Shown here: piece after piece, positions 31,364 to 59,070 of the stretch
Layout: each line of letters opens with the position of its first letter
How positions within the stretch are numbered: position 1 is the first letter of the stretch
Assembly: GCF_001540865.1 (NCBI RefSeq)
Contig: NC_033627.1
Span: 10,931,982 to 10,995,981, forward strand
Direction: 5' to 3'
From: Ananas comosus
Lineage: Eukaryota; Streptophyta; Magnoliopsida; Poales; Bromeliaceae
Length of the DNA stretch: 64,000 nt
Translations under genes and position numbers: made by a program
Notes under the pieces: model-generated
Databases searched by the model: none
What the model was told of the DNA's origin: nothing
Seen by the model: the letters and a program-made list of their open reading frames with translations, nothing else

Positions 31364-32331
31364 CTTTAATTTCCGGATCGCGGATCGGAGGTCGTTCGGT
31401 GGTCGCGCGTGGATTGGGTCGAGCCGAGCGGCGTGCGCCGTGGGAGGCCGATTGCGAGTGACGACGAGCTATCGGAACGCTATAAAAGATGGGTGGTGAC
31501 CATCCCGAAGCAGTTGAACTGCTCCCTATGTCTAAGTATTATGGTTGATCAATTATGCATATTGAGCATGATGCATTATCGGGTGCTTAATTAGTTGTTA
31601 TACATTCTTGCATGCTAAAGGTAGTGTTGTATTACTTGTTTAACACTTGAGCCTTGTATGCATGAGATTGAGATATGTTGATTAGTAATCCTATAATGAG
31701 ATGATAAATGTTGATTTGATCCTGGGTAGACGAAAACCTATTGGATGTGTAATTAGTGTATTGGGAACACTTAAACAAGAACGAATGGCATTTGAACTAG
31801 TGTAACTATTATGCATAATAGGGTATTAAATAGTTGCATTTTCATTCTTGCATGATCCTTAGTAGTGTAGCAACATGAGTTTGGCACTTGACTTAGGATG
31901 CATGAGAATAGGGACTTGTGACTTAGAACTCTATAGTGGTGAAGTAAATGATGAACTTAATCTTGTGTTGACGAGAACCAAAGAACGAGTGGCATCTAGA
32001 TAAATGAATAACTTGACGTGTGGCATGATAGGTAGAGTAAAATGGAAACACTTATTGCATGTTGAACTTAGGGATGAACTAGCTCCCAAATGATGTTGTC
32101 TAGAGTGGTAGGGTAACCTCTGTGACGAGGATTTGATCACACTCATATGTCTGTTCAAAGCTTGGGGTGGTCGCTCCACACAAGCAGTGTATTCCGGAGT
32201 TGTCACACGATAGGGATAGCCTTTTGGGTCCCGCAGACGGTCTTGGGCGAGTGAGCTGATCCTCCCCAGGTGAGTTGGGTGAGTGAGCTGATCCTCACCT
32301 GTGAGATAGAGATTGGATTGTGGTACCTGTG
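31364..32331 (+). repeat. 968-bp block repeated at 34540-35507
   Basis: Every part compared between the two blocks is identical, with a constant offset of 3176. The first copy stops exactly at the N at 32332. The second continues into the rest of the LTR. To the left of the second copy is a CTCGAGCTCGG-type repeat not found to the left of the first. This fits two alleles or contig ends placed one after the other, one carrying an insertion, better than a genuine old duplication. Confidence 0.8.
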
Positions 32332-32332: not shown

Positions 32333-32853
32333 GTAGTAAACGAGCCGTTTTACTACCGATTTGTTTTCGATGATAGAGCTTCCAAATTGACAATCGGCTC
32401 CGTTAAATATGATCTAAACCATTTAAACTATTTAGAAATCAAATTTCACGCACTTTCGATATTGTTCTTTCATCCATCAAGTGAACAGAAAAATAAATGG
32501 CTGAAAATGAATACTCTTTAAAAAATGATGATAGGAGTCTTGTAATAAAGATTAAGAGTATAGATCTTGTTTTAAATAGTTTAAAGAATTTTCTAACAAA
32601 AATTCTTTAGATTTGGATATCTTTACGCCGTTAAACGAGAAAACGCCTCTTATCGACTATTAAAATTACAAATTTTGCAACCCTTTGATCATTAGGTAAA
32701 TGATGTCGAAAAGATTTGAAATTTTATTTCTAAACACTTCAAGTGGTATAGATCATGTTCAATGGAGCCGATCGTCAATTTGGAAGTTCTATCATTGAAA
32801 ACAAATCGGTAGTAAAACGGCTCGTTTACTACCGATAGTACTCTAGCTCAACT
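32333..32853. mobile_element. Fold-back MITE (AGTTGAGCT family), left end cut by N
   Basis: Long inverted arms: GTAGTAAACGAGCCGTTTTA...CGATGATAGAGCTTCC on the left and its reverse complement ending at about 32840, then CTCTAGCTCAACT. Related to 59071-59611. The interior is AT-rich and non-coding. It is followed by CT and TA microsatellite. Confidence 0.75.
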
Positions 32854-32873
32854 CTCTCTCTCTCTATATATAG

Positions 32874-33122
32874 TAGAGCTACTATGCTATCGAAAGTATA
32901 GAGGATCTGGTGCTTTCGATTTTTTGATTCTTAGATCAACCCCTTTAATCATTTCTTATCTTTGGATTAATACTATTATTAGCTTGTAGGGATTACTCAA
33001 TCTTAGGGGTATTATTTAATCCTAGGGGGACCGCAATCATCCTAACCATACAATTCTTAATCAAAGGGTCAAAAATTCAAAAACATCAAATCCTCTATAT
33101 TTTCGATAGCATAGTAGTTGTA
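32874..33122. mobile_element. Short fold-back MITE (about 250 bp)
   Basis: Terminal arms TAGAGCTACTATGCTATCGA on the left and TCGATAGCATAGTAGTTGTA on the right are near-perfect inverted repeats. It is flanked by (TA)n. The interior has TTAGATCAACCCCTTTAA, shared with 58819-59050. No coding capacity. Confidence 0.75.
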
Positions 33123-33431: not shown

Positions 33432-34509
33432 CTATTAATTGTATGCTTGAAAAAATATACAGAATATTTTTAAAATAAAAATTATTATTCATATAAAATT
33501 TAAATTTAGTTATATATAATTGGATAGTTTAATCCAATATTTATCTATATAATTTATTTATTTTTGACTGCATAAATAAAAATGAATAATATGGAGATTG
33601 AAAGTGGAAGAAAAGATATGTGAGGCTGAAAAGATTAGATATTCAACTCATAAATTATTTTTTCTCATATTACAATACTATATTTCATATAATTATTTTG
33701 TACTTTGAATTATTAGACATATTTTTGTATCAAATTACAGATAATGTTCTATACAAATTAAACTATTAATCGATGTTGAGAATTTCAAGTGGCTCGTTTA
33801 CGGCTCGAGCTCGCTCGACTCGAAATTAGGCTCGCTCGAGCTCGGCTCGAATTAATTTCAATCCAAGCTTGAGCTTAAATTTAGGCTCGAAATTAATTTC
33901 AAGCCGAATNCTATTAATTGTATGCTTGAGAAAATATACAGAATATTTTTAAAGTAAAAAATTATTATTCATATAAAATTTTAATTTTAGTTATATATGA
34001 TTGGATAGTTTAATCCAATATTTATCTATATAATTTATTTATTTTTGACTGCATAAATGAAAATGAATAATATGGAGATTGAAAGCGGAAGAAAAGACAT
34101 GTGAGGCTGAAAAGATTAGATATTCAACTCATAAATTTTTTCCTCATATTATTCATTTTTATTTATGCAGTCAAAAATAAATAAATTATATAGGAGATTG
34201 AAAGTGGAAGAAAAGATATGTGAGGCTGAAAAGATTAGATATTCAACTCATAAATTATTTTTTCTCATATTACAATACTATATTTCATATAATTATTTTG
34301 TACTTTGAATTATTAGACATATTTTTGTATCAAATTACAGATAATGTTCTATACAAATTAAACTATTAATCGATGTTGAGAATTTCAAGTGGCTCGTTTA
34401 CGGCTCGAGCTCGCTCGACTCGAAATTAGGCTCGCTCGAGCTCGGCTCGAATTAATTTCAATCCAAGCTTGAGCTTAAATTTAGGCTCGAAATTAATTTC
34501 AAGCCGAAT
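33432..34509. repeat. Duplicated AT-rich block around the N at 33910, with CTCGAG-rich end
   Basis: 33432-33909 recurs at 33911-34509 with an extra internal segment of about 121 bp. That segment contains an inverted copy (34145-34190) of part of its own sequence and then a second copy of GAGATTGAAAGTGGAAGAAA. Both copies end with a dense CTCGAGCTCGGCTCGA motif region (33790-33909; 34390-34509), a widespread plant repeat motif. The exact stop at the N again suggests unmerged contig overlap. Confidence 0.7.
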
Positions 34510-35509
34510 TTGAGCCGAGGTAAGCTTGCTCGAGCTCGGCTTTAATTTCCGGATCGCGGATCGGAGGTCGTTCGGTGGTCGCGCGTGGATTGGGTCGAGC
34601 CGAGCGGCGTGCGCCGTGGGAGGCCGATTGCGAGTGACGACGAGCTATCGGAACGCTATAAAAGATGGGTGGTGACCATCCCGAAGCAGTTGAACTGCTC
34701 CCTATGTCTAAGTATTATGGTTGATCAATTATGCATATTGAGCATGATGCATTATCGGGTGCTTAATTAGTTGTTATACATTCTTGCATGCTAAAGGTAG
34801 TGTTGTATTACTTGTTTAACACTTGAGCCTTGTATGCATGAGATTGAGATATGTTGATTAGTAATCCTATAATGAGATGATAAATGTTGATTTGATCCTG
34901 GGTAGACGAAAACCTATTGGATGTGTAATTAGTGTATTGGGAACACTTAAACAAGAACGAATGGCATTTGAACTAGTGTAACTATTATGCATAATAGGGT
35001 ATTAAATAGTTGCATTTTCATTCTTGCATGATCCTTAGTAGTGTAGCAACATGAGTTTGGCACTTGACTTAGGATGCATGAGAATAGGGACTTGTGACTT
35101 AGAACTCTATAGTGGTGAAGTAAATGATGAACTTAATCTTGTGTTGACGAGAACCAAAGAACGAGTGGCATCTAGATAAATGAATAACTTGACGTGTGGC
35201 ATGATAGGTAGAGTAAAATGGAAACACTTATTGCATGTTGAACTTAGGGATGAACTAGCTCCCAAATGATGTTGTCTAGAGTGGTAGGGTAACCTCTGTG
35301 ACGAGGATTTGATCACACTCATATGTCTGTTCAAAGCTTGGGGTGGTCGCTCCACACAAGCAGTGTATTCCGGAGTTGTCACACGATAGGGATAGCCTTT
35401 TGGGTCCCGCAGACGGTCTTGGGCGAGTGAGCTGATCCTCCCCAGGTGAGTTGGGTGAGTGAGCTGATCCTCACCTGTGAGATAGAGATTGGATTGTGGT
35501 ACCTGTGTT

Positions 35510-35770
35510 GAGTCGGGCGAGTAAGCGGATCCTCCCCGTAGAGAGTGTGTTGTGAGTCGGGCGAGTAAGCGGATCCTCCCCGTAGAGAGTGTGTTGTGAG
35601 TCGGCGAGTGAGCGGATCCTCCCCGTAGAGAGTAGGTTATGAGTCGGGCGAGTGAGCGGATCCTCCCCATAGAGAGTAGGTTGTGAGTCGGGCGAGTGAG
35701 CGGATCCTCCCCGTAGAGAGTGTGTGTGTGTGTGTTGTGAGTCGGGTGAGTGAGCGGATCCTCACCAGTG
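35510..35770 (+). repeat. 44-bp minisatellite within the solo LTR
   Basis: Six units start at 35510, 35554, 35598, 35641, 35684 and 35739, each GAGTCGGGCGAGTRAGCGGA followed by TCCTCCCCRTAGAGAGT. The last spacing is longer because of a (GT)n run. The minus strand gives a repetitive His/Thr/Pro/Leu-rich open frame of 227 codons, which is an artefact of the repeat. The same array appears reversed without complement at about 39780-40040. Confidence 0.85.
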
Positions 35771-37302
35771 TGACCGAGCAGATGTGGCACCTATAAGGGG
35801 GCCGTGAGATTGAGACGTAAGATAGAAGGCGAGCCCATGGGTTAGCCGAGTGATTGGGTGATTTAATGAATAGCATCGTTGTTGAACATAGTAGCATAGT
35901 AGCTAGCCTTTACTATGTAGTGCATGCATTCATTATATTGGATTAAGGCATGGTAGAGTACTTGCACTTTTCTTATTGTTATCGCTTTCATGTTATTTAT
36001 CTATCTATCTGCCTATGCATGCTTAGACCTAGTGGGGAGATTGGCGGAGTCGGCGGCCGAACCCACTAGGAACTATTCGTAGTTCTCACCCCACTTTGTT
36101 GTAGGGCCGAGTACGAGCACGCCATTTGAGGATCGTGGTAAGGGCTTAGCGCCCTAGTGGTTGTAGTAGCTTACCTTCTTTTTTGCATTAGAGCTACCCT
36201 ATGTACTTGAGAGTAGATGATGTATAAGGTGAGATGAGTTGGTGAATTGTAAATTTATATTTATGTTTTGGAAGAATGTAAATGTAATCAATGTAAATAA
36301 TGGTTGAATGGTTGTGATAGTTAGTTAGTATCTCTCTTTTATTCACTTGTATGTACTCTACTTGTGATGCTTGCTCTTGGTTGTTCGGCACTGGTCGTGC
36401 TCTCGTTGTTGTTGTTGATCGTGTATTTATTCAAGTTGATTTCCTGGGAACTTGTTGTACATGATCTCGTCGTTTTGCCTTGGGCGGACAGGGGAGGTGC
36501 TGTCCGTCCGGCGTCTGTTCGACGCGCCCGAGCCGGACCAAATTGGTAGCGGTCTCGGGGCATGACAGGTACTATAGAGTACCTTCGTAGTTCCTCAAAA
36601 CCTGATTCCTGAATAAACTGTTTTTGTATTGTGTACCGGTACGCGACTTGAGTACCGGTTTTACCAGTACGGGTACGCGAATTGAGTTTGGGTATTGATT
36701 TTCTATTTTTGTATTTTGTACCAGTATGCGACTTTGAGTACTCGTACACAGTTTCATGACTGGCTGGATATGTTGAATTTGACTCCAATTTGATCTAATC
36801 TTGATCCTAGAGATTAGGGATAGTCCATGAATACTTTAAAGAGGATTTTAAAGAGGTGATCGACGGCTAGATGTGAATCGAATTCTCTGATGGACGGTAA
36901 AGATTGTTTAGTATAAGAATTGGGATTTTAGAGATATATTAACTCTTGTAATTAATCTTTTAAATGAGAGCTTCATTGTAGGCACCCTAATTGAGAGAAA
37001 AACGTGGAGAGCTCCTGAGAGAGAAGTTTTTGTAATCCAATCTTACTCCTCATACTTTTGTGCCCTGGATTAATCGAAGAATGTATTGAGGTGGTCTTAT
37101 CCGTAGATGTAGGTCGACTCGTCGTTGGCCAAACCACATAAATCCTGTGTTCTTGTGTTCTCTTTGTTCTTTCTATTGCTTTGTTATTTTCGTGCTTCTT
37201 TTCTACGATCGTTCTCATCTTTTTCGTTGATAAAAGATCCTATTTTCACTATGCTTGTGTACTGTTTGGGTTTAAGGTGTGCTCGGTAACCCCATGGTCA
37301 GT

Positions 37303-37571
37303 CCCTTTAGTAAGAAGGGAGAGCACCATCGGAACGGAGGTGGCTGTTGCGGTAGAGGGAGAGAGTGGGAGCGGGATAGTGTAAAAATATACAAGGGGTG
37401 AAAGAAAACGAAGAAGAAAAAAATAAAAAAAAATTTTCTTTTTCTTGGAAGGCCATCATATGCCCTTTAGTAAGAAGGGAGAGCACCATCGGAACGGAGG
37501 TGGCTGTTGCGGTAGAGGGAGAGAGTGGGAGCGGGATAGTGTAAAAATATACAAGGGGTGAAAGAAAACGA
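37303..37571. repeat. 109-bp local duplication ending at the N at 37572
   Basis: 37303-37411 (CCCTTTAGTAAGAAGGGAGA onward) recurs as 37463-37571, offset 160, and stops at the N. The mirrored block to the right preserves a different continuation after 37459, so the second copy here looks like a scaffolding artefact. Sequence from about 37270 is the left arm of a fold-back repeat whose right arm is at 41212-42010. Confidence 0.75.
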
Positions 37572-37572
37572 N

Positions 37573-40500
37573 TGGGACACCAAATTTCACATAGTTCAAT
37601 CATGGGACACCAAAATAAAAACATAGTTCAATCATGGGACACCAAAAATTTGGTGTCCCATGATTTCACTCTTTCACGCTTTGGTGTCCCGTGATTTCAC
37701 TCTTTCACGCTTTGGTATCCCATGATTGAACTATGTGAAATTTGGTGTCCTATGATTTTACTTTTTCACGTTTTGGTGTCCCATGATTGAACTATGTGAA
37801 ATTTGGTGTCCCATGATTTCACTCTTTTTCACTTTGGTGTTCCCCATAAACTTCAAAAGTGCAACATGATAAACTCTGATTCAACATAATAAACTCTGAA
37901 GTCAACGTAGTATATTTTGATAAATTCTGAATTCAATATCATAAACTTCTCCACGTTGAATTAGAGTTTATTAAAATTTACCACGTTGATTTCAAAGTTT
38001 GTTACATTAAAGTTAAAATACACCACGTTTAATTAGAGTTTATCAAAATTTATCATGTTAAAGGATAGTTTATTACGTTGAAACAAAAGAAAAAAAGAGA
38101 TGAAGAATCGGAAAATACACCGTTTGTGTTATATACTACCGGAAGGTTCTTCTTCTTTTAAAAAAAAATAAAAAAAGAAGAAGCAAAAGAAAGTGGGGAA
38201 CATATAAAAATGTGATAGGGCGAGGGTGAGAGAGGGAGATGGCGTTGTCGGTGGAGGCAAGGCTACCACGAGAGGGAAGAATGATTTCCCTGACTGGTAC
38301 CCCAATGGCTCGTGTGGAATTTGGGTTTGTCATGTGTTCGTATCACTTTTATCCTAGAAAATAGTTGCTTTTTCTACTCTTGCTAGCATCTTTTCTTCGT
38401 GCTTTTATTGTTTCGTTATCTTTCTTGTTTCTCTTGTGTTCTTGTGTCCTAAATACACCAAACCGGTTGCTGCTCAGCTGGATGTAGATGCCTATTCTGG
38501 TGGAGTTATGTAAGAAGCTAATTAGGTCCCGTGTTTTCATACTCCTCATTCTAACCTAATGTTTTTGAAGAGAGAGTCCTCGAGAGGTGCAAAAAGAGAG
38601 TTAATCCCACGGATGTTACTTCGAGAGTAAATTTTCTAATTAATGTTCTCAATTATATAGAGATTTTAGGGTTAAGAATATGATTTGTTAGAAATGGCAG
38701 GTAGTCTCTTAAGCTAAGTGTAGATCGGCAGCTAGTGGAGAAATTTTAGGAGAAATTTCATAAGTACCTGATAGGGATTAGAGATCCTAGTTCTAATCTA
38801 GTTTAACCTCAGTTTAAGTTGTATAGGTCGGTCAGTACTTTGACACATGCTCATGAGTTTCAGCGTATGACCATGTTTTATGTTTTTATCTTTTAGTTAT
38901 GGGTTTGAGTTAAGCGCATGGGCATGACCATTTTGGCCATGAGTTCAGCGCATGGCCATGTGTTATGTTTTTGTCAAATAAGTCCTTAGTCCAAAACTCC
39001 TTGATGCTTCCATGAGATATCATGGACAGTACGGGGCTCTGGCGATGGTTAAACCAGGCCGAGCCCGCGCAGCTTGTCTGCGGCCTGCCTGTCGTGGAGG
39101 GGACAGACGGGTTCCGTTTTGCTGCTCTAGTACATGTTGTTCAAGGGTCCTTTAGTTGAACTTATTTATGTGCTAGTTGTTGTTGTTGCTCTCGTGCTGG
39201 TCACGGCTTGTTGGTTCTCGTTCGTAGTGTTCATCTCATGTATGTTCACTTATTTTCTCTCTATGATTGATTGATAGTGTTGGTAAGTTGGTAATAAATG
39301 TAACTAATGTAAATGTAAGAAGGTTTTGTATTTATATTTAAATGTTAAGTGGTTGAGTAGAGTGGAATATGTAGTAGATGAGAGTTCATGTATCCCATCG
39401 AGATTACGTTTTTTCTTCCATTCGATGATGTTGGTGATCCCGCGATTCGGGAATGGTGCTAGGAGTTTACCGCACGAGCATGAGCCGGGATGTTGTTTCA
39501 CCCCACTCTTGATGCTTATCAAGGATCACCCAAGCCGGCGGCTGAGGCGGTTAGAGGGGTGATCCAGATTCGTACGTATCCGTCTATCTATCTATTTATT
39601 GTACTTTCGCTATTGTTATTCTTTTCACGTTCATGAGATGGTACGGAATTAGGTTATATTACTTACGTACGTGATGTATCATTTCCGATCGATGATACGA
39701 TGATACAAGTTGTTGCTACGATAAGTAATTTAGTGGGTTAGTGAGCCGATTGGGTACCCGAGCGGAAGATAGAATGCAGAGTTAGAGTGCCGGGGGAATA
39801 TCCACGGTGTAGACGAGCCAGTGTGACCACTCCTAGGCGAGTGAGTGGGCTGAGTGTTGTGTGTGTGTGTGTGAGAGATGCCCCTCCTAGGCGAGTGAGC
39901 GGGCTGAGTGTTGGATGAGAGATACCCCTCCTAGGCGAATGAGCGGGCTGAGTGTTGTGTGAGAGATGCCCCTCCTAGGCGAATGAGCGGGCTGAGTGTT
40001 GTGTGAGAGATGCCCCTCCTAGGCGAGTGAGCGGGCTGAGTTGTGTCCATGGTGTTAGGTTAGAGATAGAGTGTCCACTCCTAGTCGAGTGAGTGGGTTG
40101 AGTGGACCCCTCCTAGTCGAGTGAGCGGGTTCTGGCAGACGCCCTGGGTTTTCCGATAGGGATAGCACACTGTTGAGGCCTTATGTGACGAACACACCTC
40201 GCTGGTGGGGTTCGAAACTTGTCTGTATACTCACACTAGTTTAGGAGCAGTGTCTCCAATGGGATGGTGAGATCTGTTGTAGTAAACCCTCGATCAAGTA
40301 GGGATTCAAGTTGTACGTTATTCACAAAGGTAAAATGAGATGGATAGTACGGTGTGCAGTTCAATAAGTAAATAGATCTACGGTGAGCAAGAAACCAAGA
40401 GCAGTTGTGTTCTAATTCAAGTAGTAAATGAAGTGGTGATATCTCAAGATTCAGTGTTCAGGGATAAGAGTACGTAGGATTCAGTTCACGGTTTGAGTAC

Positions 40501-41211
40501 AACGATGTGATGATTCCTAGTACGTTCTTACTTTTACGTTGATAAATTATGGGATAATACGTATTATCAATGTGATCAAGTTTACGGTAAGCAAGAACAA
40601 ATTCACAAGGGTTATGTGATTAATGTGTAGGTTATCCAAAAGCAGATGGGTCCTAGTTTAGTTGTAAATAGTAGAGTAATATCCTAATGATTAGTTGTAT
40701 AGAGTTAGAGTACGTATGTTCCGAGTTCACAATTTGTTCATTATGTTGTGATGGAAATCGTACGTTCTTACATATTGTTGATTAATTCGTGGGCTATTAC
40801 GTAGTACGAGTTATACGTATTAACTAGTTGGTATTATGAATCTGTATCCCTCGTCAAGTTGACGAAGCCCTACCAGTGGTGGGTAGAAAATATCGCAAGG
40901 CTATCGAGCAGCAGTGAGCGTTAGCCGGAGGGTGCCGCGTGCGGCGAGCCGAGCTGGGTTAGGTGCGCGCTGGTGGCTTGCTGGAGGCTAGGCGCTAGGC
41001 CTTTAATTTCGGCTCGAGCTCGTTCGAACGTACGGACGTCCAGCTGAGATCTCCTAGGGGCCCATGGCTCGAGCTTAAGCGGGATATCACTCAGCATAAT
41101 GTTAAGTGACCGGCAGCAAAATGTTGCAGCACTGACCCTTTTGGGACCGCAATGGGTTGAATTAGCGGAACGTCGTGTAGGGGGAAAGCGGTCGACCGCA
41201 TTATCGCTTCT
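37573..41211. other. Mirror-image block: reversed but not complemented copy of 34522-37459 plus BAC vector
   Basis: For any position y in about 38091-41028, the base equals the base at 75550 minus y on the SAME strand. Checked examples: 40141-40170 read backwards gives 35380-35409; 38983 downward gives the LTR end and TSD at 36567-36572; 38281-38340 backwards gives 37210-37269. Below 38091 the reversed text continues into sequence not present elsewhere and finally overlaps 41233-41272. Reversed from 41211 to 41023 it is cloning-vector DNA. DNA cannot acquire such an orientation naturally, so this is a file or assembly error. No gene call inside it is valid, including the 139-codon frame at 40921-41340. 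Confidence 0.97.
41023..41211. other. BAC vector (lacZ-alpha polylinker) in mirror orientation
   Basis: Reading downward from 41211 without complementing gives: lacZ-alpha (TCTTCGCTATTACGCCAGCT), the M13 forward site GTTTTCCCAGTCACGAC and GTAAAACGACGGCCAGT, the T7 promoter TAATACGACTCACTATAGGG (41100 to 41081), then EcoRI, SacI, KpnI, SmaI, BamHI, XbaI, SalI, PstI, SphI and HindIII sites in pUC order. AAGCTT at 41028-41023 is fused to plant DNA that continues from the genomic HindIII site at 34522-34527. This order matches pBeloBAC11/pIndigoBAC-type vectors (known layout, from memory). It marks the end of a HindIII BAC insert. Confidence 0.97.
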
Positions 41212-42010
41212 ACTAAAGTGAGAAAGTGCGAAACCACAGGGTACTAACTTGATACACTTTAAACCACAGGGTATTAAAATGAAAAAGTGCGAAACCACAG
41301 AGGGGGTTTTTGAAGTTCTCCCTAATTTTAAATGGTACAATTAGCTTCAACATAGTCTCAAATAGTACAACTTTTATTTTATTAGCGCAATTTAATCTCA
41401 AATAGTTTTAAACGGTGCAATTAGCTTCAAACAGTACAATTTAGTCTCAAACAATACAATTTTATCTCAAATAGTGCAATTTCGTATTATTCTTCTTACT
41501 TCTCGATTTCTTGGCCCTTTCTGGAGTGGCCATGACATATAATGATCTTCCCAAGAGAAAAGAAAATATAATATATTTTTTCTTGTTATTCTTTTCTTTT
41601 ATTTTTCTTTCATCCTCTGTATCTTTTTTATCTACTCCATCTTCTCTCTCACCGTCTACCGCAACAACTGCCCCTGCCTCGACGTTTTCTCTCTCTTCAT
41701 CATCCTCAAATCCTGCGGACTCTCGTCACTATCGTCATCTACCACTATAACCACCACCGCAACCTCACCTCTACAATTTGCGTCATATCTGAGCTAGAGT
41801 CAGTAGATTTGTAGATGAGGTAAGAGAGAGGACTCTGCCGCAACAGCCGCCTCCGCCCCTATGTGTTCTCCCTCTCTGTCATCTTCAAATCTTGCGGCAC
41901 TCTCGTCGTCGTCATAAGAGTATTTTGATCGGTTTATTAAAAATTCAGGTCGCTTCTTTAAAATAAAAAAAATAGTGGTGTTTTTTTGCATTTTCGCAAA
42001 ACCGGTGGAT
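41212..42010. repeat. Right arm of a long fold-back repeat (ACCACAGGGTACTA family)
   Basis: Repeated units of GAAACCACAGGGTACTAAC...TTTAAACCACAGGGTAT at 41212-41310, then AATAGTACAATT/AAACAGTACAATT words to 41490, then TGGCCATGACATATAATGAT and a pyrimidine-rich stretch with CCGTCTACCGCAACAACTGC. The reverse complement of this order occurs to the left: 37300-37459, then the unmirrored tail of the anomalous block. The two arms would meet at a GGTTTAAAAACC centre. Open frames here are low-complexity. Confidence 0.6.
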
Positions 42011-42360
42011 TTTTTTTTGCAAAAGGACCTTGTTTAATCTAAATTTCATCTTAAACTCATTTTGATCTTTATGTTCATTTACGAGAAGAGTGTAGAGTTA
42101 TTAAATAAAGAGTGAACATCAATTTGCTCCCGTATGGTTTAGTTTATTTTTACTTTACCATCATATGTTTCAAAAAGTTGCATATAACTATTCTATTAGT
42201 TGATTTTCATTTTGTCATTAATTCACTTTGTCACCCTATTTGATGGTAAATTTTTTGGATAAAAATAGAAATAAACTACAGAATAGTTAACTATGGCTTT
42301 TTGAATCGTGAGATGGCAAAATAAAAGTGAGCTAAAGCACAAGGGAGCAAATAGAAGTTT
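42011..42360. other. AT-rich, no gene seen
   Basis: Non-coding AT-rich sequence. A stretch near 42120-42370 (TTTGCTCCCGTATGGTTTAG ... AAGGGAGCAAATAGAAG) is self-complementary at its ends, so a small inverted-repeat element is possible. Confidence 0.35.
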
Positions 42361-42910
42361 ATCCTTAAGTAAATTAACAACGAAGAGAGAGAGAAAAAAA
42401 GCCCTCAATTTTAGGAAGAAAAGGAGAAGATGACGACTTTAAGGTGAGCTTATTTTTCTTGCTTCTTTACCGGTTAATAAAATACTATCTGAATAATGCT
42501 ATAAGAATAACCAGAAGAACTAATTAAATTGAATCTTTTATTTTGGAATTTTAAATTTTTTTTTCTTTTTTCTGTTGCAGCAAAATTCTCCTCATTATTC
42601 TCTTTTGCTAAATGCTTCATTGGACAATGCTGCTGCTGCTGATAACATAAGGAAGGAGCAGGGCCAAATGTGCAGAGCTTATAATAATAATGAGCATTAA
42701 TCATTAAGTTGTTCGGCTTTACTTGCCACTAGTGCGAAAGAAGTAGATGCCTACTTTTGGCGTTGATAGAGGAGTAATTATAACAAAAGAGCATATATAA
42801 TCTTGAAGAAGATAAAAGTGTAAGTAAATTAACAATGAAGCCAAAGAAAAAGCCTCACAGTGAAGAAAACAAGGAGGAGGAGAAGATATTGAAGTGTGCT
42901 CTGCTTTTTT
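42360..42910 (+). pseudogene. Tandemly duplicated gene-like debris, related to 54170-54430
   Basis: Two related segments (42360-42450 and 42815-42905) share AAGTAAATTAACAAYGAAG and AAAAAGCC. The first leads to an ATG at 42430 (MTTL) followed after 14 nt by a GTGAGC donor. A pyrimidine tract ends in GTTGCAG at 42581. Joining gives a hydrophobic start (about 15 residues, signal-peptide-like) and then a stop. The following text, GGAGCAGGGCCAAATGTG ... CCACTAGTGCGAAAGAAGTAG, is matched at 54295-54390. I cannot name a family. It could equally be an unclassified repeat. Confidence 0.3.
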
Positions 42911-43480
42911 TCCCTACTAAATTAAGGGCCTTAATTTGTTAGGTACTGGACTAATCGATGCACTATTATCACAAATATATGAAAGGAAAAAAATTGAATG
43001 ACAAAAAAATAAATATAGAAAGAAAAAAAAAAAACATTATTTATGTGATTAGGTAATTACATACGTCCACCGGGAGAGTAATGTCAAATTATATGGAACA
43101 ACTATTTTTTTATTTCTAAAGTAATGCCGAGTTATATGAAATAATAAATTTTGTACAGTGATGTTAAATTATACGAAATAATTATTAATTTTTTTAAGCT
43201 TAAACTACTAAAAAATAGTATTTTTGTCCAAGACATTCAAACTCAGTAACCTAGCAGGATTGTCCTAGACATTTGATTATCCAAAACTTTGTAATTATAT
43301 ATGAGAAATTTAAATAATACTAGAAGGTTAGAGGGATTCAAATTCAGAATTTTTTTTTTTACTCTGATGCTCTGTTAAACTATATGAAACATAACTATTT
43401 TTTTCTAAAATTTTAAACTACTACAGATTGGTGTTTTTATAGTTTGGCATTTGCTCCTGTGTGGTTTAACAAGTATAAAT

Positions 43481-43643
43481 TTATTTATTTATTTTTTTTT
43501 TTTTGAGAGATAGGTAGCACGCTATCTATTTCGTTTATTTCATTTACAAATAAACTTAGCTAAAAATGTGAATCAATTAGGATTCGAACTTGGATCTTGG
43601 GTACCAACCACCAAGCCCTTTGTCACTTGCTCTAGGGACGGTC
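43481..43643 (-). mobile_element. SINE with 18-bp target-site duplication
   Basis: On the minus strand it starts ACCGTCCCTAGAGCAAGTGA (box A-like TAGAGCAAGTG), has AGTTCGAATCC (plus-strand 43580-43590), a good RNA polymerase III box B, and ends in CTATCTCTCAAAAAAAA. The flanks are the perfect 18-bp repeat GGTTTAACAAGTATAAAT at 43463-43480 and 43644-43661. This is the signature of a tRNA-derived SINE inserted by LINE-type target-primed reverse transcription. The tail word GAGAGATAGGTAGCACGCTA is also found in the truncated copy at 9078. Confidence 0.92.
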
Positions 43644-43661
43644 GGTTTAACAAGTATAAAT

Positions 43662-44335
43662 CTAACGGTGGATATTAAAGGGCAAAACTAGTAATTTACC
43701 ATATTAATCCCATACCATAAAAGAAGAAGTTGGACCATTTTTTTCTCGGCCAACTTTCTCTTGTACAATGGGTCGACCATCATAATTATCGACGAGTGGT
43801 AAAAATGAATAGAGGCCCCCTTAATTATAGGACATTTTGAAATGACACCTTCATTTTGTTTTTTCAAGTGAGACTTCTTTTATCTTTATTTTTTTATAAT
43901 TGAGTCATTTTAGTCCTAATATATAGAAATTTTATTAAATTCATTGATGATTTACTAGATTTAATGGCTTCAAACATTTTTTTGGCAAATAAAACTGAAC
44001 CAATTAATGACTAATAATTCATAGAGTCATTAAATTTAATAAAAATTCAAATAATAAAATTAGAAGTTGAGGGAGCTTCAATCAAAAAATTAATTAAAGT
44101 TGACGACTCTGTTTCAAATTGGGTCTCCAAAAATTTTTGCCTTAAAAAATGCTTAAAAATGTATGGAGACCCGTGACCTATATATAAGCCATCTTGAAAT
44201 GGGACACTAAAGTTTACTTATCTTAATTTATACTTTTTAACTTCCAACTATTCTAAATTTGAGCTATTTTAGTATGTTTCGTTAAAAAAATTTATAACAT
44301 TAATGACCCTATTAATTATCAGTCATTAGTGCACT
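43662..44335. other. Intergenic AT-rich DNA, no gene seen
   Basis: Contains words such as GGACATTTTGAAATGACACC and AAATGGGACACTAAAG, similar in style to dispersed plant repeats, but with no clear ends. It is the left host flank of the LINE; its last bases start the TSD (44336-44347). Confidence 0.4.
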
Positions 44336-47300
44336 CTAGGTTTATTTTTTTTTTAAAGAACACCATAAGGCATTTATTTTATAGGATAAACAGTCACAGA
44401 CTTTTCAAACGTTGCAAAAGAAGACCAACTAGAAACTATCTGAGAACTAAGGCCCCATTTAGCTAGTTTATTAGCACATTGTGAAAATGAACTATATGTA
44501 GAAGACCACCCTATAAGAATATTATTGTTGGACTCCAAAAGGCGGCGAAGCGAAGCAATATGCTCTACTTCTTGTAGTGAAATCAGGATATGCTGGTCCT
44601 TATACAAACAGGAGCGAATGATAGTAGTCGAATCTGTGTAAATTGAGCACTTGATATTAGGCCGATTATTTAGAAGCCACTTAACTGCCTCAGTACATGC
44701 TTGTATCTCTGCAGCAAGAGCAGTTTCTGAATCGATGGAAGGTGCTGCGCAACAATAAACGACCACATCCCCTTCAATGACTAAATATCCAATTCCACCC
44801 GAGTGATTTTCCTTCCAAGCACCATCCACCCAACAGATGGTGTTTGGTCGTGAAAAAGAATTTATAGTAGCCGGATCAGGAATATTGAGAGGTTGAAGGT
44901 GAGCTTTGCTATAGAGCTCTGTCTGTATTCTCGCATTCCTCAGAACTTCCGAACACGAAAATTTCTTGTGCTGAAAAACATAATCATTGCGTGCCTTCCA
45001 AATGGACCACAACACATGCATGCAGTATGCCCGAATCTCGTAAAATCATTCATTGTTAATGAGTGCCTCCAACCACTCTACGAAAGTCAATGAAGACTGT
45101 GCAGTGCGCAAACCAACCTGCGAGGCAAACCACACTTGCTGACTTAATGGACAATGAAAGAACAGATGATCCCTCGTCTCAGACTGCTCTTGGCATAGTG
45201 GGCAAGAGTCTTCGAAATGAGATATACGCTCTGCAAGCTTGGTGCCCACTGGAAGAGCATCCACAACAGCACGCCAAATGAATAGTTTAACCCGCGGCAT
45301 AACTTCCTTGAGCTTCCATATTTTAAAGCAAATACCTTGTGTCCTTGAACTAATCCCATGATTCACACTTGAAGATTGCTGTCGGTTCAGATACGAAATC
45401 GCTGAGCTTAGGGTGAAACGTCCTGTAGATGTAGCCTTCCACCGAGTACGCTCCCTTATTTGTTCAAAAGCCCCATGTAGAACATGTCTCATACTCAGCA
45501 TGGATTTTCAAATCTGAGAGGCATTCGATCTAGCTATTGCTGTCCAGAAATCCTGCACTAGATATTTGTGTTTGATAGCTTTCGCCCACAAGGAATTAGG
45601 ACAGTGTAAGAAACTCCAAACCAATTTAGTAACAAGCGCTCTGTTGAGTACTTCTAGGGATGGAATTCCCAATCCTCCATCTTTCCGTTCTCTCGTGAGT
45701 TTTGACCACACCCGCGGGTATAAATGCCTATTAGAGTCATCAAACCCCCACCAAAAGTCTCTAATAACATTTTCAATCCTGTGAATGAACTTGGTCGGGA
45801 GAATAATAAAACTGAGATAGAAGCATAGTATAGCAAGTAAAACAGATTGTATAAGAGTAAGTCTTCCCGCATGGGAGAGACTTTTAGCTTTCCAACCTGT
45901 TAATCTCTTTTGCAAGCGATTAATAACAAACTCGAATGTATTAGTAAGGCTTTTTTCAAGAAAAAGGGGGTTCCCTAGATACTTGCCTTGCAAGGGTGCA
46001 TCTTTTATATTTAGCTCCAGTTGACCTCGCTCATGCGTCGATTGAAAATAATTGCCGATTTGGAATAGTTAATTTCTTCCCCAGATAATTCACAAAAATT
46101 AAGAAGGAGCATCTTAAGGGCACGAATATCATCATTGGTTGCTTTTGAGAAAACAAATAAATTGTCGGCATACAATACGTGAGTTAGAATTGGCCCGCCA
46201 GTTCCAAGGCGAATCCCTTCTAACGAATTTTCCACAGTGGCTGCCTTGAACATTGCAGATAAAGCATTAATGGCTAATATGAATAAGTAAGGGGAAACTA
46301 GACATCCTTGCCGTAGGCCTCTAGTCGGTTTGAACCAATTAGAATCCTCACCATTAATTAAAACTGAAAAATCAACAGTGGAGATGCACCAATTAACCCA
46401 CTTACAAAACCTTTCAGGAAATCCGTATTTATGGAGCATAATGAGAAGAAAGTCCCAGCTAGGTCAATTTAAATGGCTACGGCCCCTGATTTATGATGCA
46501 TCAATTTAAAAGTATGTAAGACTTCCTGGGTGAGTAAATAATTGTCAGTAATGCTTCTACCTGGGACGAAAGCAGATTGCTCCGGAGCTATGAGATCAGG
46601 AAGGATCGCCTTTAGTTGGTTAACAAGGATCTTCTCCAAACACTTGTATATGACATTGCATAAACTAATCGGCCTGAAATCAGTAATATGCTCGGGGTGA
46701 TCTTTCTTTGGAATAAGAACAATGGATGTCTTATTAATGCTTGTGGGGACATCCTTTTCACTGAAGAAAGCCTGCACTAATGAAAATAGGTCAGTGTGTA
46801 CCAGATCCCAATGGGTATGGAAAAACGAGGAGAAAACCCATCTGGGCCCGGTGATTTATCAAGTTTCATACTAAACAGCGCATCCCGCAACTCGGAGAGT
46901 TGGGGAGGCGCTATTAACTGTGTTGCATTAGTAGAGGAGATAATAGGGAGAAAGCAGTCAGAAGTACTCCATTTTGAAGCAGAGGTGTCACAAAAATGTG
47001 GTAAAGAATAGCAATGATTAAAGTGCTGAGTAATATGCTCCCGAATTTTAGATTGATCAGTGAGCACGAATCCCGAATTGTTTTTTAGCGTGGTAATGGT
47101 ATTACTCTTCTTTCTCTGCGAAGCCTTTGCATGAAAATACGTAGTGTTTCGATCTCCGAACCTGATCCAATTGTCTTTAGCTCTTTGTGCCCAAAATAGC
47201 TCTTGCTTATACAAAAGATCCTTGTACATCGCTGTAAGCGAACCTCCTTCTTCCTAGCCGGATCGCTAAGAGGTAGCCTTTGCAGCTTAGTAAGTTGTTG

Positions 47301-47763
47301 AAATGTGCTATCCAATTGGGCTCGCAAATTAAGGCGGTGCGCTCCTGCCCAACGACTCAGATCAAAAGAGAGTCGACGGAGTCATCGCGGCATGGAAGCA
47401 CCCGAGTCAGAAGTCCAACTCCGCCGAACCTCTTGCTTGCAGTCCTCCTGAAGCAGCCACCAATTTTTGAATCGAAATCGCTTTTTCCGGCGGGCATTCG
47501 ATACATGCAAAGAGAGGAGTAGAGGACTATAGTCATTGGCAACTGTAGGCAAAAGTACTAAGCGGGCTGCAGGAAAAATATTTGACCATTGAGGGTCTAC
47601 GAGCACTCTATCAAGTCGCTCAAGGATCGTGAATGGAGGTTTTTGCTTATTAGTCCAGGTATAACCCGGCCCGACAGGCTTAACCTCAAAAAACCCTCCT
47701 GCTTGGATGAAACGACGCAACGGAGTGTTGGACAGAGATGAAGAAGAGGTACCTCCTAACTTA

Positions 47764-48158
47764 TCTAAAATCTCCAATGAGCATAGTTGGGAGGCTTGCT
47801 TGCTTAATAAGATCAAGGAGTGAATTCCACACAGTAGCAACTAGAGCAGAGATGGGTTGATATAGACTCCGACAAAAAGCCAAGGAGGGGAGTCAGCAAC
47901 ATCCACAGTGGCGAGAATGAAAGCGGCAGATGAAGCAAAAATTTTAATATGAATCTCATCNTCTAAAATCTCCAATGAGCATAGTTGGGAGGCTTGCTTG
48001 CTTAATAAGATCAAGGAGTGAATTCCACACAGTAGCAACTAGAGCAGAGATGGGTTGATATAGACTCCGACAAAAAGCCAAGGAGGGGAGTCAGCAACAT
48101 CCACAGTGGCGAGAATGAAAGCGGCAGATGAAGCAAAAATTTTAATATGAATCTCATC
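47764..48158. repeat. 197-bp duplication across the N at 47961
   Basis: 47764-47960 (TCTAAAATCTCCAATGAGC onward) equals 47962-48158, with a single N between. Inside a LINE coding region this would duplicate part of the endonuclease domain. The exact abutment on the N shows an unmerged contig overlap rather than biology. Confidence 0.9.
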
Positions 48159-51047: not shown

Positions 51048-53037
51048 TCATTGATCGAGTGACGGCGCGTTATCCAACGTCATCACCGTTTCATTATTAG
51101 CAAAAGCTAGTTGTTGAAACGCCTCCACGCAAATAGGTTCAGTTATCTCCAAGCTGGTATGGTCACGTCTTTTAAAGCTAGTCTTATTAGCCGCAAGTAG
51201 ATTAACCTTCTTCAAACGTCCAGGCAAACCAGGAATCGGGCTAAGTACCCATGCATCAGAATTACTCATAACATGAATCGGGACGTTAAAAATAGAGCCA
51301 ATATGTTCGGTAATCTGGATTATATCCTGGTTTGGCAAGGTCACCTGATTGGGCTCTGACATAGTCGGTGCATTGGGTTCAAGGTGCATTGTGTTGTCAA
51401 CATGTTCATAGTAGGAAAAATTGGTGTAATTGTTGATTGGCCCACATTTGGAGCAGTACAGGAGATATTTTAGGCAGTTATGCTTGCTTTGTTGGTAGTG
51501 TCTATCGGAATCTTGCTGCATGATTGGAGCGACTGATTCTCCTACCTGATTTCTCGGTAACCCACACCATCCCTATCAGGAAAGTATCTTGTCTCTAAGG
51601 CACCTTCCAAAACCGAATCCGCACTCTTGGAAACAGATTTCAAAATCTTGTCCTTCGGGAAGGTAATCTCCATAGGAATGCTAACATTGTGCTTGATGTC
51701 CCCATCTGATGCACTGACCGTAACAGGCAACGGCCCTGCCATTGCCGCAGCCGATCGAGATGGATGTTGGATAACGAGGACGAAGGAAATCAATAATTCC
51801 TGCTCGATCCGACACAGATGTGTCAGGAGGGATGAGGTCTATCATTGATTCACGGACTGTGCAATGTTCCATATCATGACCAATTAATTCGCAGAAGATG
51901 CAAAACCGAGGCAAACGTTCATATGCAATCTTTAGATTAAAGGGCTCGATGTCAGTGATATGAGCGACCAACTTATCTTTCAATGGTTGACGAAGATCAA
52001 TGAGTACACGAGCCCGAATATAATTAGGCCGGACTAAGCGAGAGTTCGGAATTATAGGTAGCACCTCACCAAGCTCCTCTGCCAATTTGAGAGCGATATT
52101 AGGTAGAAGCAGGTCCGGAGGCAATACATGAAACTGCACCCACATTGGTGTATAATGCAACTTGTATTTCTCTAACTAAGTAAACATTCGAAATTGCTCC
52201 AAAACTAGGATAGATCCATTATAGCACCATGGGGAAGCATTCCAAACAGCCATAAGGTCTGCCTCCTATCCAAGACTAATGAAGAATATGCCGGTCTTTG
52301 CCTCTCGAATATCAAAAGACTTGACGAAGGACCAAACCCGCACTACAACAAAAACGGTGTATAGCGACACTTTTAAATGTCGGTATAGATCAAAAAAAGT
52401 GTTGCTGGCTAAATTACCGACACTTTTAAAAAGTGTTGCTATATATGGGGTCGCTAGGTATATAGTGACAGTTAAAAGTGTCGGTATAACCTAAAAATAG
52501 TGTTGCTAATTTACCAACACTTATTTAAGCATTTATCAACTGCCGGAACTCTACTTCGTTGGCTGCGGTGGCCGAGGAGGAGGAGAGGGAAGGGCTCTTC
52601 GTTTAGAATTTCAGTGGATTGAGTGAGGGGAGAAGGGAAGATGGTAATCGATTTTTCTTTTTTTTTTTCTTTTTTGTTTGTAATCGGGCCGAATGGGTTG
52701 GGTGGAGTGGCTTGAGTAGAGTAACCTTTCATTTTTAGTTGGTTTGGGCTTTATATTTAGGCATTAGTAGATTTTTTTTAAAGTTTTAGCATAAATAGGA
52801 CACTTACACAAAAGTGTTCCAAATATGTATTTCTATAACCCAATTCTGTTGTAGTGCCGACGAAGGACACTAAGGAGCCCCCTCAATGGCGGGTGAACAT
52901 CTAAAAGAAGCTAGTTTCACCACAAAGCAGTGCCGGAAAAAAGGGTCCGGTGTAGCGTCGTCCGACCGGCGAGTTACCTTCGCCGTAGGTGGCGTAGACA
53001 AAAGCCGACGAAATTTTTCCAATAAATCCTCTTCCAT
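51048..53037 (-). pseudogene. LINE ORF1: nucleic-acid-binding protein (decayed)
   Basis: Begins MEEDLLEKFRRL at 53037. A DUF4283-like part (AVWNASPWCYNGSILVLEQF, near 52.2 kb) is split by the CACTA MITE and by stops. The central part has WVQFHVLPPDLLLP and a zinc knuckle CIFCELIGHDMEHC (C-X2-C-X4-H-X4-C, about 51.9 kb), the arrangement typical of plant L1 ORF1, which binds element RNA. The C-terminal part ends at a TGA whose last bases overlap the ORF2 start (ATGA, 51051-51048), so ORF2 was probably translated by re-initiation. Frames are interrupted at about 51.5-51.7 kb. Confidence 0.88.
52341..52856. mobile_element. Non-autonomous CACTA element (516 bp)
   Basis: Ends CACTACAACAAAAACGG and ...TTCTGTTGTAGTG are terminal inverted repeats of the CACTA superfamily. 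The flanks are the 3-bp duplication CCG (52338-52340, 52857-52859), the expected size. Sub-terminal repeats of AGTGTTGCTA and AGTGTCGGTAT words in both orientations occupy the left 170 bp. The middle is a GC-richer stretch and a T-rich tract, with no transposase. It interrupts LINE ORF1, so it is younger than the LINE. Confidence 0.95.
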
Positions 53038-54430: not shown

Positions 54431-55010
54431 TACGTGGTAGAATAAAGACAACATTGAGTGCTTCATTAATTTTAAATGTTATTCCTTCGTACCATTCTAT
54501 TCGTTTCCCTTGTGTTAAGTCACGTTGTCCAGTGCATTGTCTCGGTCCCATGTATGTAAAGAGAGGATATATCCATATATGTATATATATATACACACAC
54601 AAACGCATGTATGGAGCAGCTCCAAAGGTGTTGGAGCTAGAAGAACCTTCCTAATAATAATTTAACAATAAGTTTCACAGAGGTACGTGCCCGAAACCCT
54701 TATCTTTTTATATGCCCAGCTAACATAGTCTATTATCATCACTTACTTTTATTTATCTTTTTCAAGAGGTAATTGGTAACCATTTTTTCTAGTTTATGAT
54801 TTTGTACACTGTATGCATAGTAGTTTAATTTCTTTGTCGACAATATCCCTGCATCTCGAGAAACTCTTACGCAGGTCAACACTCCCCTTAGTGCCCATAT
54901 ATATTATGATCACTAACGCAACATGCGCACCTGCATAATAGAAATGCTAATGTGCAGGTATCATATAAAATATTTGTTTTTCTCTGAGACCCTTATTTAT
55001 ACTGCTATCT
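54431..55010. other. Intergenic AT-rich DNA, no gene seen
   Basis: Contains a TATATATATACACACACA microsatellite at about 54582-54600. No coding or RNA gene pattern found. Confidence 0.4.
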
Positions 55011-56985
55011 AGGATTTAGTGGGTGGTTGGTTGAATAGTATGATTTAAAGAGTAGAATTAATTAAAGTGTAGATCTAACGGCTAAAAAATAGATAACAAA
55101 AGAGCCCAAATACTATTAATAGTATTTCAGCTCAATTCTCTCTTTCTTTCTCTCTCTCTCTCTCTCTCTGTCCATATAATAATATTATATATATATATAA
55201 TTATAGTATATATATATTTATACTTTATAAATTTAATATTTATAATAAGTCGCGGCTATCGTGATTTTAAAAAGCACAAAATACTTGTGGCTTGTAAGTT
55301 TCTGCCGTTAGACATAACCCTTTTGCAATCATTTCTACGCTGTTAGGATCATACTATTACATCAACCACGCACGCTCAACCTTGGAAAAACCACTATATT
55401 CTAATCGCACATACCCTTGAATCGAAATGTCGAAACCTATTAGCACCATGACTTTAATACTTTGTAAAAACATAGGAGCTTAATTCTCTCTCTCATCTCC
55501 TCCTCCCTCTCTCTCTCAAGCCTTAAGATCGATTGAGATAGAATGGATGGTATCTGTTATAGTATGGATAGTATGTGATCCGCAATATACCGATAATAAG
55601 TCCGCCAGGATGAGGAAGATCTGCCGAAGATTTAAGCGTGATACGGTAGAAGATCGAAGATAAACAGGGAAAGGAGAATAGTGCATCGTGCGGCTATGCG
55701 GGGACAGGCCTAAGTTTATCAGAAACGAGCAGAAAGGGTGGCGAAGAGGTAGAGTAAGTAGTTGAGAGATGGATATAACGTTATTGGTATCCGACGAGAT
55801 ACCACACGTATTCGTATGTGTCGCTATAAAATGAGTGAGATAGAAAGCAGGTATATAAGACATCAGTACGGTGGAGGTCTCAAAAGATGGCGTGCTTTAG
55901 AACTTGCCCTGTTAGCTATTAGTGATCGTACAGGTCGCTATGGTAGAGGATAAGAGGAAGAATTTTATGAGCATCATGGTGGTAGAAGCGAGCTCTCATC
56001 TCTCTAACTGTCTCTCTCTCTTCTATAATATATTATAATAATATATATTATATATATATATATATCGACTACGTTAGCTCTATAACTATCTAATAATTAT
56101 CGGGCTCCAGTATATAATTCGTTTTCGCTCGCAGGGGTTCAAATTAATGATCTACACTGTTATAATACTGATCTAAGATATTTGAAGTTTGTACAAATAA
56201 ATAATTTATATTTTTTTATAAATATATTACTTTATGACAAAGCCATTTCAAATTATTAATTTTTAATGCTATTATAACGATGTGTATTAATATTGTGTAG
56301 ATATAAATCTAAATTTATCAATTTTGGTAAGAACATATTTTTAACACTATCCAGATTAAGGTCATATTCTTGATCTTGAATTTAAAAGTCTATCTCTTAA
56401 ATTTAAAAATACTTAATTTTCATCCGTTCATTTAACTATGATTTTACTTATTAATTAATATAATATTGAAAAAAATAAATTTTATTTCTATGAACTCAAG
56501 TACCGTCAAATCACATTGACGTGGTGAATTCGTTGATATTTGAACACCCTAAGATGAAAACAAGATTTATAGTACTCGAAACTCCGACGCTGTAGATTGA
56601 TATACAGCCTCTACATATTATATATATAATATGGCATGACCTGGAATATTTATTAATAGATATAATGCCTTTCTGCTATCATGAGTTTTAAATTCTTGGA
56701 TGAACAAATTGTAGGTTAGAATGATTATAGTGGTCCTCTTAAGTTAGCTAGTAGTTGCCCTAAGTTAGTGATTGGTTAGTTGAATATATACTAAAGGATA
56801 AAATTGATACAAAGTTAGATACTCGGCTAAAAAATCGAGTAGCAAAAGCAGTTCAAAATACTATTAATTAATAGTTAATAGGTATCTACCAGCAGCTCAT
56901 CTCGTCTCGTCTCTACTCTCTCCTCATCTCCTCCTTCTCTCATCTCTCTCTTCTATATATATATATATATATAATATATATATAG

Positions 56986-57016
<31 letters not shown>

Positions 57017-57590
57017 AGGCAGGAGAAGAGAGAGCTAGTGTCCTATATTATTCTATACTACCGGGCTTCGGTAGCTATACGTCCTCGTTTTCTGATCTCA
57101 GGGGTTCAATTAACGACATCACACCGTTAAAACTGATCTAGGTATTTAAAATTTTTAGAAATAAGATTTATATTTTATCGAATAGTTTACTTATATGATC
57201 AAACCATTTCAAAATTGTCAATTTTTAATGGCTACTATGCGCGAGTTTGAGTTTAACCGTAGAGAAAATCTAATTTCTCAATTTTGATAAAATATACTTT
57301 AAACTATCTAGTATTAAGGTTTAACATTCCTGATCTTGTAATTTAAAAGTGCTATGGCTGTAAATTTACAAGTCTGATTCAAATCTTTCAACCATCCATT
57401 TTTAACATAAATTTATTATTTAATAACTATAACGATACGAAAAAACAACTAAAATTTATTCCTAAAATTTATATATTCCCTAGATCATATTTAGAATGTG
57501 TGGGATCGTTAATTTAAACCACCATAAATCAGAAACAAGATGAAGTACGCGGAGCTCCGTACCATAAGATATTATAGTAGCTTAATTTAA
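55010..57590. repeat. Diverged fold-back MITEs and microsatellites
   Basis: Several decayed relatives of the elements to the right can be recognised. About 55240-55485 has TTTCTGCCGTTAGACATAAC and ATTAGCACCATGACTTTAAT, like 58819-59050. About 56070-56630 and 57045-57590 have GGGCTYCRGTA starts and AGGGGTTCAAATTAA words like the longer type. They are separated by CTCTCT and (TA)n tracts (55140-55200, 56030-56065, 56955-57012). Ends are too diverged to place exactly. Confidence 0.5.
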
Positions 57591-57636
57591 TATATATATA
57601 CTAATATATATATATATCATTTATATATATTATATA

Positions 57637-58184
57637 GTAAGCTTAGCTCCTATGCTATTCGAAGTACGGGAGGCCTCCGTAACTGTAAGTTGTATTTCGA
57701 CTGATGGGACGTCCGTTCGGCGATCGTTTCGTTAGATCATGATCTATATTATTGGAACTATCTTAGAAACCAAATTTCATAATTTTTTGACTTCGTTTGC
57801 CTAGTGAACGAGTAGCCTCAAAATGAACGGCTGAAAATAAAAATCTCATAAAAAATAATGATAAAGAACTCAAATTTCAAATCGGAGGTATTGATCTTAC
57901 TATTGACGTTAAGTAGAATTTTCTATTAAATTTTCATGTAATTTGGATACTTCTACACCGTTGAACTTAAAAACATGCCGCATCGGCCATTAAAATAGTC
58001 ATTTTTGAGACCTTTTGATCGCTTAGTAAATGATGTCAAAAAATTATAAAATTTGGTTTCTAGATAGTTCCAATAGGGTAGATTATACCTAACGGAGCCG
58101 ATCGTCGAATCGGATGTCCTATCATCGAAAACAACTTACAAGCACGGAGGTCCCCGTACTTTCAAAAGTATAGTAGACGCACTC
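57637..58184. mobile_element. Fold-back MITE, long type, copy 1
   Basis: Left arm GCTCCTATGCTATTCGAAGT ... TAAGTTGTATTTCG and right arm ACAACTTACAAGCACGGAGG ... CTTTCAAAAGTATAGTAG are inverted repeats covering most of the element. It is close to the next copy along its whole length. Flanked by (TA)n on both sides. Confidence 0.8.
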
Positions 58185-58201
58185 TATATATATATATATA
58201 T

Positions 58202-58740: not shown

Positions 58741-58743
<3 letters not shown>
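58202..58743. mobile_element. Fold-back MITE, long type, copy 2
   Basis: AGAGCTAGGCTCCTATGCTT on the left; the right arm ends GAAAGTATAGTAGACGGAC. It shares with copy 1 the words GGGACGTCCG, AACGAGTAGCCTCAAAATGA and CTTCTACACCGTTGAA. It is followed by a composite (TA)n(TG)n(TATG)n microsatellite at 58744-58818. Confidence 0.85.
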
Positions 58744-58810
<67 letters not shown>

Positions 58811-58818
58811 ATGTATGT

Positions 58819-59050: not shown

Positions 59051-59070
59051 ATATATATATATATATATAG

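What the first reader, a model, noticed from the sequence alone, without database searches (positions are those of the whole stretch)
37573..41211. A 3.6-kb block is written backwards without complementing, and carries hidden BAC vector
Base y equals base 75550-y on the same strand across 38091-41028 (examples: 35380-35409 against 40170-40141, and 36567-36572 against 38983-38978). No natural inversion does this; an inversion would also complement. At its right end the reversed text is lacZ-alpha, M13 forward site, T7 promoter and pUC polylinker up to HindIII. Because neither strand of the record contains the vector in a legal orientation, routine vector screening and BLAST would pass it as novel, unmatched DNA. 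Gene finders would invent proteins here.
Basis: partly seen in the sequence, partly recalled or inferred. Interest (0 to 1): 0.97.

Follow-up and report, generated by a model that had tools for sequence, protein, structure and literature searches.

The report
Pineapple contig stretch written backwards
In a pineapple genome sequence, 3.6 kb from the end of a cloned fragment, with a piece of its cloning vector still attached, was pasted in backwards without complementing it, so this is a clerical assembly error and not biology.

Summary
Text 37573-41211 is reversed without complement. Reversed, 38132-41028 matches 34522-37461 over 2,897 bases with 4 mismatches and one 43-base gap in a tandem repeat. 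Reversed, 41023-41211 is a BAC-type lacZ-alpha/T7/polylinker end at HindIII, 189/189 identical to an F-type plasmid record; as written it has no match there. Mirror axis 75550 holds only for 39954-41028; for 38132-39953 it is 75593.

New here: reversed in place, the block's end joins 41212 in phase with a local repeat (57 exact bases across the seam); the other three versions give no seam, also when each is tested against its own database. The vector match stops at 41211 too. So the block is the 5' part of contig 37573-47960: untrimmed BAC end, about 2.9 kb overlapping the previous contig, 559 further bases, then 41212. The DNA is pineapple.

Most likely a gap-closing or contig-extension step oriented a BAC-derived patch by reversing (or complementing) only. 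I know of no natural process that does this. Verdict: artefact; whether more such patches exist in the source assembly is untested.

The parts
33911..37571 (+). Left-hand contig, ordinary orientation; 34522-37461 is the ordinary twin of the reversed block and begins with the genomic HindIII site AAGCTT (34522-34527)
35597..35639 (+). 43 bases of a tandem repeat present here and absent from the reversed copy (exact placement within the repeat is arbitrary); this shifts the mirror axis from 75550 to 75593
37463..37571 (+). End of the left contig: a second, exact copy of 37303-37411 that the reversed block does not have, so probably a faulty contig end
37572..37572 (.). Single N, read as a join between contigs
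37573..41211 (.). Block whose text is reversed without complement; in its proper sense it is the 5' end of contig 37573-47960
37573..38131 (.). Reversed text without a twin in the left contig: 559 bases that bridge from the equivalent of 37461 to 41212
38132..41028 (.). Reversed copy of 34522-37461
   Evidence: 4 mismatches in 2,897, one gap
41023..41028 (.). HindIII cloning junction (AAGCTT when reversed), shared by vector and insert
41023..41211 (.). Reversed BAC-type vector end: lacZ-alpha, M13 forward priming site, T7 promoter, polylinker up to HindIII (motif names recalled)
   Evidence: 189 of 189 bases identical to CP036489.1
41212..47960 (+). Rest of the same contig in ordinary orientation; its first 14 bases complete the 57-base repeat seam once the block is reversed
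31364..32331 (+). Third, ordinary copy of 34540-35507 (968 bases, 100%), also a reversed match to 40043-41010, at the end of another contig

Best explanation
This is a clerical assembly artefact. A BAC-derived consensus (vector end, HindIII, about 2.9 kb of insert overlapping the contig before it, then 559 further bases) was used to extend or close the gap at the left end of the contig that now begins in ordinary text at 41212. The patch was turned round by reversing the string without complementing it, or equivalently it was built on the opposite strand and complemented without being reversed. The vector was never trimmed, and the overlap with the left contig was left unmerged behind a single N. 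Shown: the reversal, the vector, the overlap, the limits and an in-phase seam. Inferred: that the source was a BAC assembly, and that a gap-closing or extension step rather than a hand edit made the error.
For: Reversed alignment to 34522-37461, 4 mismatches in 2,897 bases with one tandem-repeat gap. Longest exact reversed match 1,001 against at most 18 in 200 controls. Vector end 189/189 only when reversed, no match as written. The insert starts at a HindIII site present in the left contig at 34522. Two limits found independently agree: the vector match stops at 41211, and the 41211/41212 join gives 57 exact bases only in the reversed version, also when each of the four versions is tested against a database holding itself. 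A divergent relative at 50141-50848 matches the left contig directly and the block only when reversed. The tetranucleotide model scores -19.4 at 40001-41000 against +21.2 for the corresponding ordinary text, 34501-35500. Another unmerged contig overlap sits at a single N: 47764-47960 = 47962-48158. The DNA is pineapple: the first 144 residues of an Ananas comosus DETOXIFICATION 46 protein are 100% identical to 2395-2826, and a paper states that BAC pools were used for the pineapple reference (PMC6139296, passages).
Against: The seam lies in a tandem repeat: moving the right-hand start over 200 positions gives a seam at 3, and trimming the block over 200 positions gives one at 5 (each count includes the actual cut), so an in-phase join alone is worth roughly 1 in 40 to 1 in 70. 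The block's last 42 bases also equal 41231-41272, so a short overlap with the flank is an alternative to a join exactly at 41212. No raw reads, no independent pineapple assembly and no assembly log could be examined. The tetranucleotide test is weak in the left half of the block (+1.4 at 38501-39500) and in the matching part of the twin (+1.1 and -2.2 at 36001 and 36501), and is negative in 10 windows outside the block, down to -9.3. My paper searches found no report of such a bug (listings), and the assembly paper itself is not held.
Confidence: 0.97

Rival explanations
1. The block was reversed by hand in a sequence editor, or in later handling of the data after the assembly was made.
For: A hand 'reverse' gives the same letters; the sequence alone cannot separate this from a program error.
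Against: The limits fall on a contig start (N at 37572) and on a point inside a repeat, where contigs tend to break, that is also the join to 41212. This fits a patch boundary made during assembly better than an arbitrary later edit.
Confidence: 0.12
2. A natural long mirror repeat (H-DNA type) in the plant genome.
For: Mirror symmetry is what is seen between 34522-37461 and 38132-41028.
Against: About 2.9 kb at 4 mismatches, with a synthetic cloning-vector end attached, cannot be a plant repeat; I know of no polymerase or recombinase that copies DNA in parallel sense (recalled knowledge).
Confidence: 0.01
3. An ordinary inversion or inverted repeat with BAC vector at its end.
For: Inverted copies are common in plant transposon-rich DNA (recalled), and some exist in this window, e.g. 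within 57609-60595.
Against: The reverse complement of the block shares no exact stretch of 12 or more bases with the left contig, gives no BLAST hit to it, and no seam at either side.
Confidence: 0.005

Closest known systems
Untrimmed BAC vector end in a draft assembly (pBeloBAC11/pIndigoBAC type; vector name recalled)
   Same: lacZ-alpha, T7, polylinker and HindIII junction to insert; 189/189 identical to a record with repE, sopA and a ParB-family gene
   Different: The vector is readable only after reversing the text, so a VecScreen-like search of the window as written misses it
Unmerged contig overlap at a scaffold join
   Same: Neighbouring contigs repeat the same locus around a single N, as at 47961
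   Different: Here one of the two overlapping copies is text-reversed
Mirror repeat (H-DNA type; recalled)
   Same: Same-strand mirror symmetry
   Different: Kilobase scale, carries synthetic vector, and its bounds are contig joins

Membership tests
Text-reversal artefact | Reversed string, and not its reverse complement, matches known DNA | tested here: met
Text-reversal artefact | Limits coincide with contig or patch boundaries | tested here: met
   N at 37572; vector ends at 41211; seam 41211/41212 in the reversed version only. That 41212 was once a contig start is inferred.
Text-reversal artefact | Not supported by raw reads | not testable with these tools
   No reads held
BAC vector end (pBeloBAC11 type) | lacZ-alpha/T7/polylinker ending in HindIII, exact, on an F-type backbone | tested here: met
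   189/189 to CP036489.1, which carries repE, sopA and a ParB-family gene
BAC vector end (pBeloBAC11 type) | Identity with the named vector record | not tested
   No vector database was searched; the name is recalled
Natural inversion / inverted repeat | Reverse complement matches | tested here: not met
Natural mirror repeat | Both arms are native DNA | tested here: not met
   The reversed block ends in synthetic vector

The most novel reading that the evidence does not exclude
The error is systematic: the step that extended contig 5' ends or closed gaps in this pineapple assembly reversed patches without complementing them, so many such blocks, invisible to BLAST and vector screens, remain in the reference and give rise to spurious 'unique' DNA and gene models.
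Probability: 0.3. Interest if true: 0.5.

Novelty: not a real feature. Interest (0 to 1): 0.25.

Why it matters
There is no biology here. For databases it is a clean example of a contaminant and misassembly that string searches cannot see, because BLAST and vector screens test a string and its reverse complement but not its bare reverse. One extra pass (screening reversed text against vectors and against the assembly itself) would find such cases cheaply. If the error recurs in a crop reference, it affects gene models and repeat counts.

Tried and rejected
Natural inversion, natural mirror repeat, and as-written or complement-only matches of the block to the left contig: four versions tested and rejected. 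My first seam test used a database holding only the reversed version, which favoured it; repeated with each version against a database holding itself, the result is the same.

Other reversed stretches in this window: in the reversed-window self-comparison the long matches are those of the block and its twins; the rest of what I saw is simple repeats or relations of the block to its flank or to about 50.2-50.9 kb. The output was cut in the middle; one search repeats the test with stricter settings and lists hits of 60 bases or more. A tetranucleotide model gave negative scores in 16 of 127 windows, 6 starting in or at the edge of the block (37501 to 40501) and 10 elsewhere (26001, 36501, seven from 55001 to 58001, and 62501; lowest -9.3). 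The 55-59 kb run is probably not reversed: parts of it match 32.3-32.9 kb, or each other, in ordinary orientation. The rest I take as noise, not proven. A reversed patch without a twin and with flat composition could be missed.

Elsewhere in public data: one piece of the reversed vector as written has 0 exact matches in viral contigs and another piece 0 in genome contigs; their forward forms have 5 and 30. This covers viral and prokaryotic collections only; plant assemblies were not available to search. Rfam (gathering threshold) and tRNA scans of the window found nothing.

Papers, seen as listings: phrases on reversed-but-not-complemented sequence gave 0 papers, 2 papers that are not about assembly by title, and 160 papers holding 3 of 4 looser terms, of which the 10 listed do not hold 'not reverse complemented'. 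The pineapple genome paper is not held. PMC6139296 and PMC8774480 were seen as passages. I looked for a printed statement that scaffolders leave a single N at overlapping contigs and saw none in the passages of two papers; that convention is recalled. Searches were listings used to find these.

Full report
Observation. On the fixed axis 75550 the block agrees base for base from about 39954 to 41028, and not further left. Allowing gaps, the reversed text of 38132-41028 aligns to 34522-37461 with 2,897 aligned bases, 4 mismatches and one 43-base gap at 35597-35639, inside a tandem repeat; for block positions 38132-39953 the axis is 75593. The longest exact match is 1,001 bases reversed, 15 as written, 16 complemented and none of 12 or more reverse-complemented, with at most 18 in 200 resampled controls. 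A further, divergent relative at 50141-50848 matches the left contig directly (two pieces, 80% over 99 bases and 72% over 191) and the block only when reversed (79% and 72%).

Vector. The reverse of 41023-41211 reads as lacZ-alpha, M13 forward site, T7 promoter and polylinker ending in AAGCTT (motif names recalled). It is identical over 189 of 189 bases to a plasmid record with repE, sopA and a ParB-family gene, that is an F-type backbone. Of 72,556 plasmid records 1,337 match at least part of it, 2 of them over 80% or more; of 50,697 phage records 12 match parts. As written the stretch has no match among the plasmid records, even with 'distant' blastn. A VecScreen-like search of the whole window against 5.2 kb of that one record finds nothing as written and one hit reversed, 41023-41211. 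The vector match stops at 41211: the next reversed base differs from the vector record.

Anatomy after reversing in place. Starting after the N at 37572, the contig would read: 183 bases of vector, the HindIII site, the insert from the genomic HindIII site at 34522 to the equivalent of 37461, 559 bases without a twin (37573-38131), then 41212 onward. The 41211/41212 seam lies in a tandem repeat (AAACCACAGGGT / ACTAAAGTGAGAAA). In the reversed version 57 exact bases across it occur elsewhere in the local repeat; the other three versions give no match with 6 or more bases on both sides, and no version gives one at the left end. The same holds when each version is searched in a database holding itself. 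Because of the repeat, 3 of 200 shifted right-hand starts and 5 of 200 block trims also give a seam, the actual cut included, so the seam is supporting and not decisive evidence. The block's last 42 bases also equal 41231-41272, so a short overlap is possible instead of a join exactly at 41212. A vector end on the left and a join on the right is what an untrimmed BAC end would give. The left contig carries an extra exact 109-base repeat at its end (37463-37571) that the block lacks.

Independence of the copies. The block is not a copy of the left contig's text: it differs by 4 bases and a 43-base repeat length, and it continues beyond it. It therefore looks like a separately assembled version of the same locus, consistent with a BAC (inference).

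Source. An open frame (44377-45045, minus) has one hit with E below 0.001 among 79 candidates, from Ananas comosus var. bracteatus, 88% over 43% of the query. A concatenation of predicted exons has as best hit protein DETOXIFICATION 46 of Ananas comosus, on a contig of 14,728,688 bases (890 hits, 120 listed, only the 8,000 candidates sharing most words scored). Its first 144 residues are 100% identical to 2395-2826, and further pieces, several of them 100%, follow up to 11261. A database paper states that the pineapple reference (F153) used whole-genome shotgun and BAC pools (PMC6139296, passages); a later paper reports potential chimeric regions and large gaps in F153 v7 (PMC8774480, passages). 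That this window is from F153 is inference.

Mechanism. A patch extending a contig at its 5' end can be built on the opposite strand; complementing it without reversing it, or reversing it without complementing it, yields exactly this text. The limits at a contig start and in a repeat where a contig could break favour a patching step over an arbitrary edit. Which program or person did it cannot be told from the sequence.

Other possible cases in the window. Self-comparison of the reversed window shows none of comparable length. The tetranucleotide test finds its lowest scores in the block (-8.7, -12.1, -19.4, -14.2 for windows from 39001 to 40501), against +20.5 and +21.2 for windows from 34001 and 34501 around the twin. 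It is weak in the left half of the block (+1.4 from 38501), weak in the matching part of the twin (+1.1 and -2.2 from 36001 and 36501), and negative in 10 of the windows elsewhere.

Verdict. The finding is right and the thing is an artefact. Interest is low as biology and moderate as data quality; it rises if the error proves to be systematic, which was not testable here.

Noticed in passing
47764-47960 and 47962-48158: Identical 197-base copies on either side of a single N: an unmerged contig overlap.
   Followed up: partly
31364-32331 and 34540-35507: 968 bases 100% identical, the first ending at an N (32332), with different sequence before 31364: either a very young transposon copy or a duplicated contig end.
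   Followed up: partly
33432-33909 and 33911-34509: Near-identical copies (95-96%) around the N at 33910.
   Followed up: no
2395-11261: Chloroplast MATE transporter gene (DETOXIFICATION 46-like); several exon pieces are identical to an Ananas comosus protein.
   Followed up: partly
44377-46855 and 51684-52175, minus strand: Pieces of LINE-type retrotransposons: RVT_1, zf-RVT and a sub-threshold RNase H in the first; zinc knuckle and a sub-threshold DUF4283 in the second ('LINE' is my reading).
   Followed up: partly
57609-60595: Cluster of direct and inverted repeats of one family, also related to 32355-32881.
   Followed up: no
L001 (CP036489.1, Rahnella aquatilis pMEM40-2): A recorded 49-kb 'plasmid' with an F-type replicon and an exact lacZ-alpha/T7/polylinker end looks like a laboratory BAC or fosmid clone.
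   Followed up: no
L007-L036: 30 stretches in prokaryote genome contigs, 24 of them on contigs under 10 kb, hold an exact 41-base lacZ-alpha/M13 piece; some may be vector contamination.
   Followed up: no
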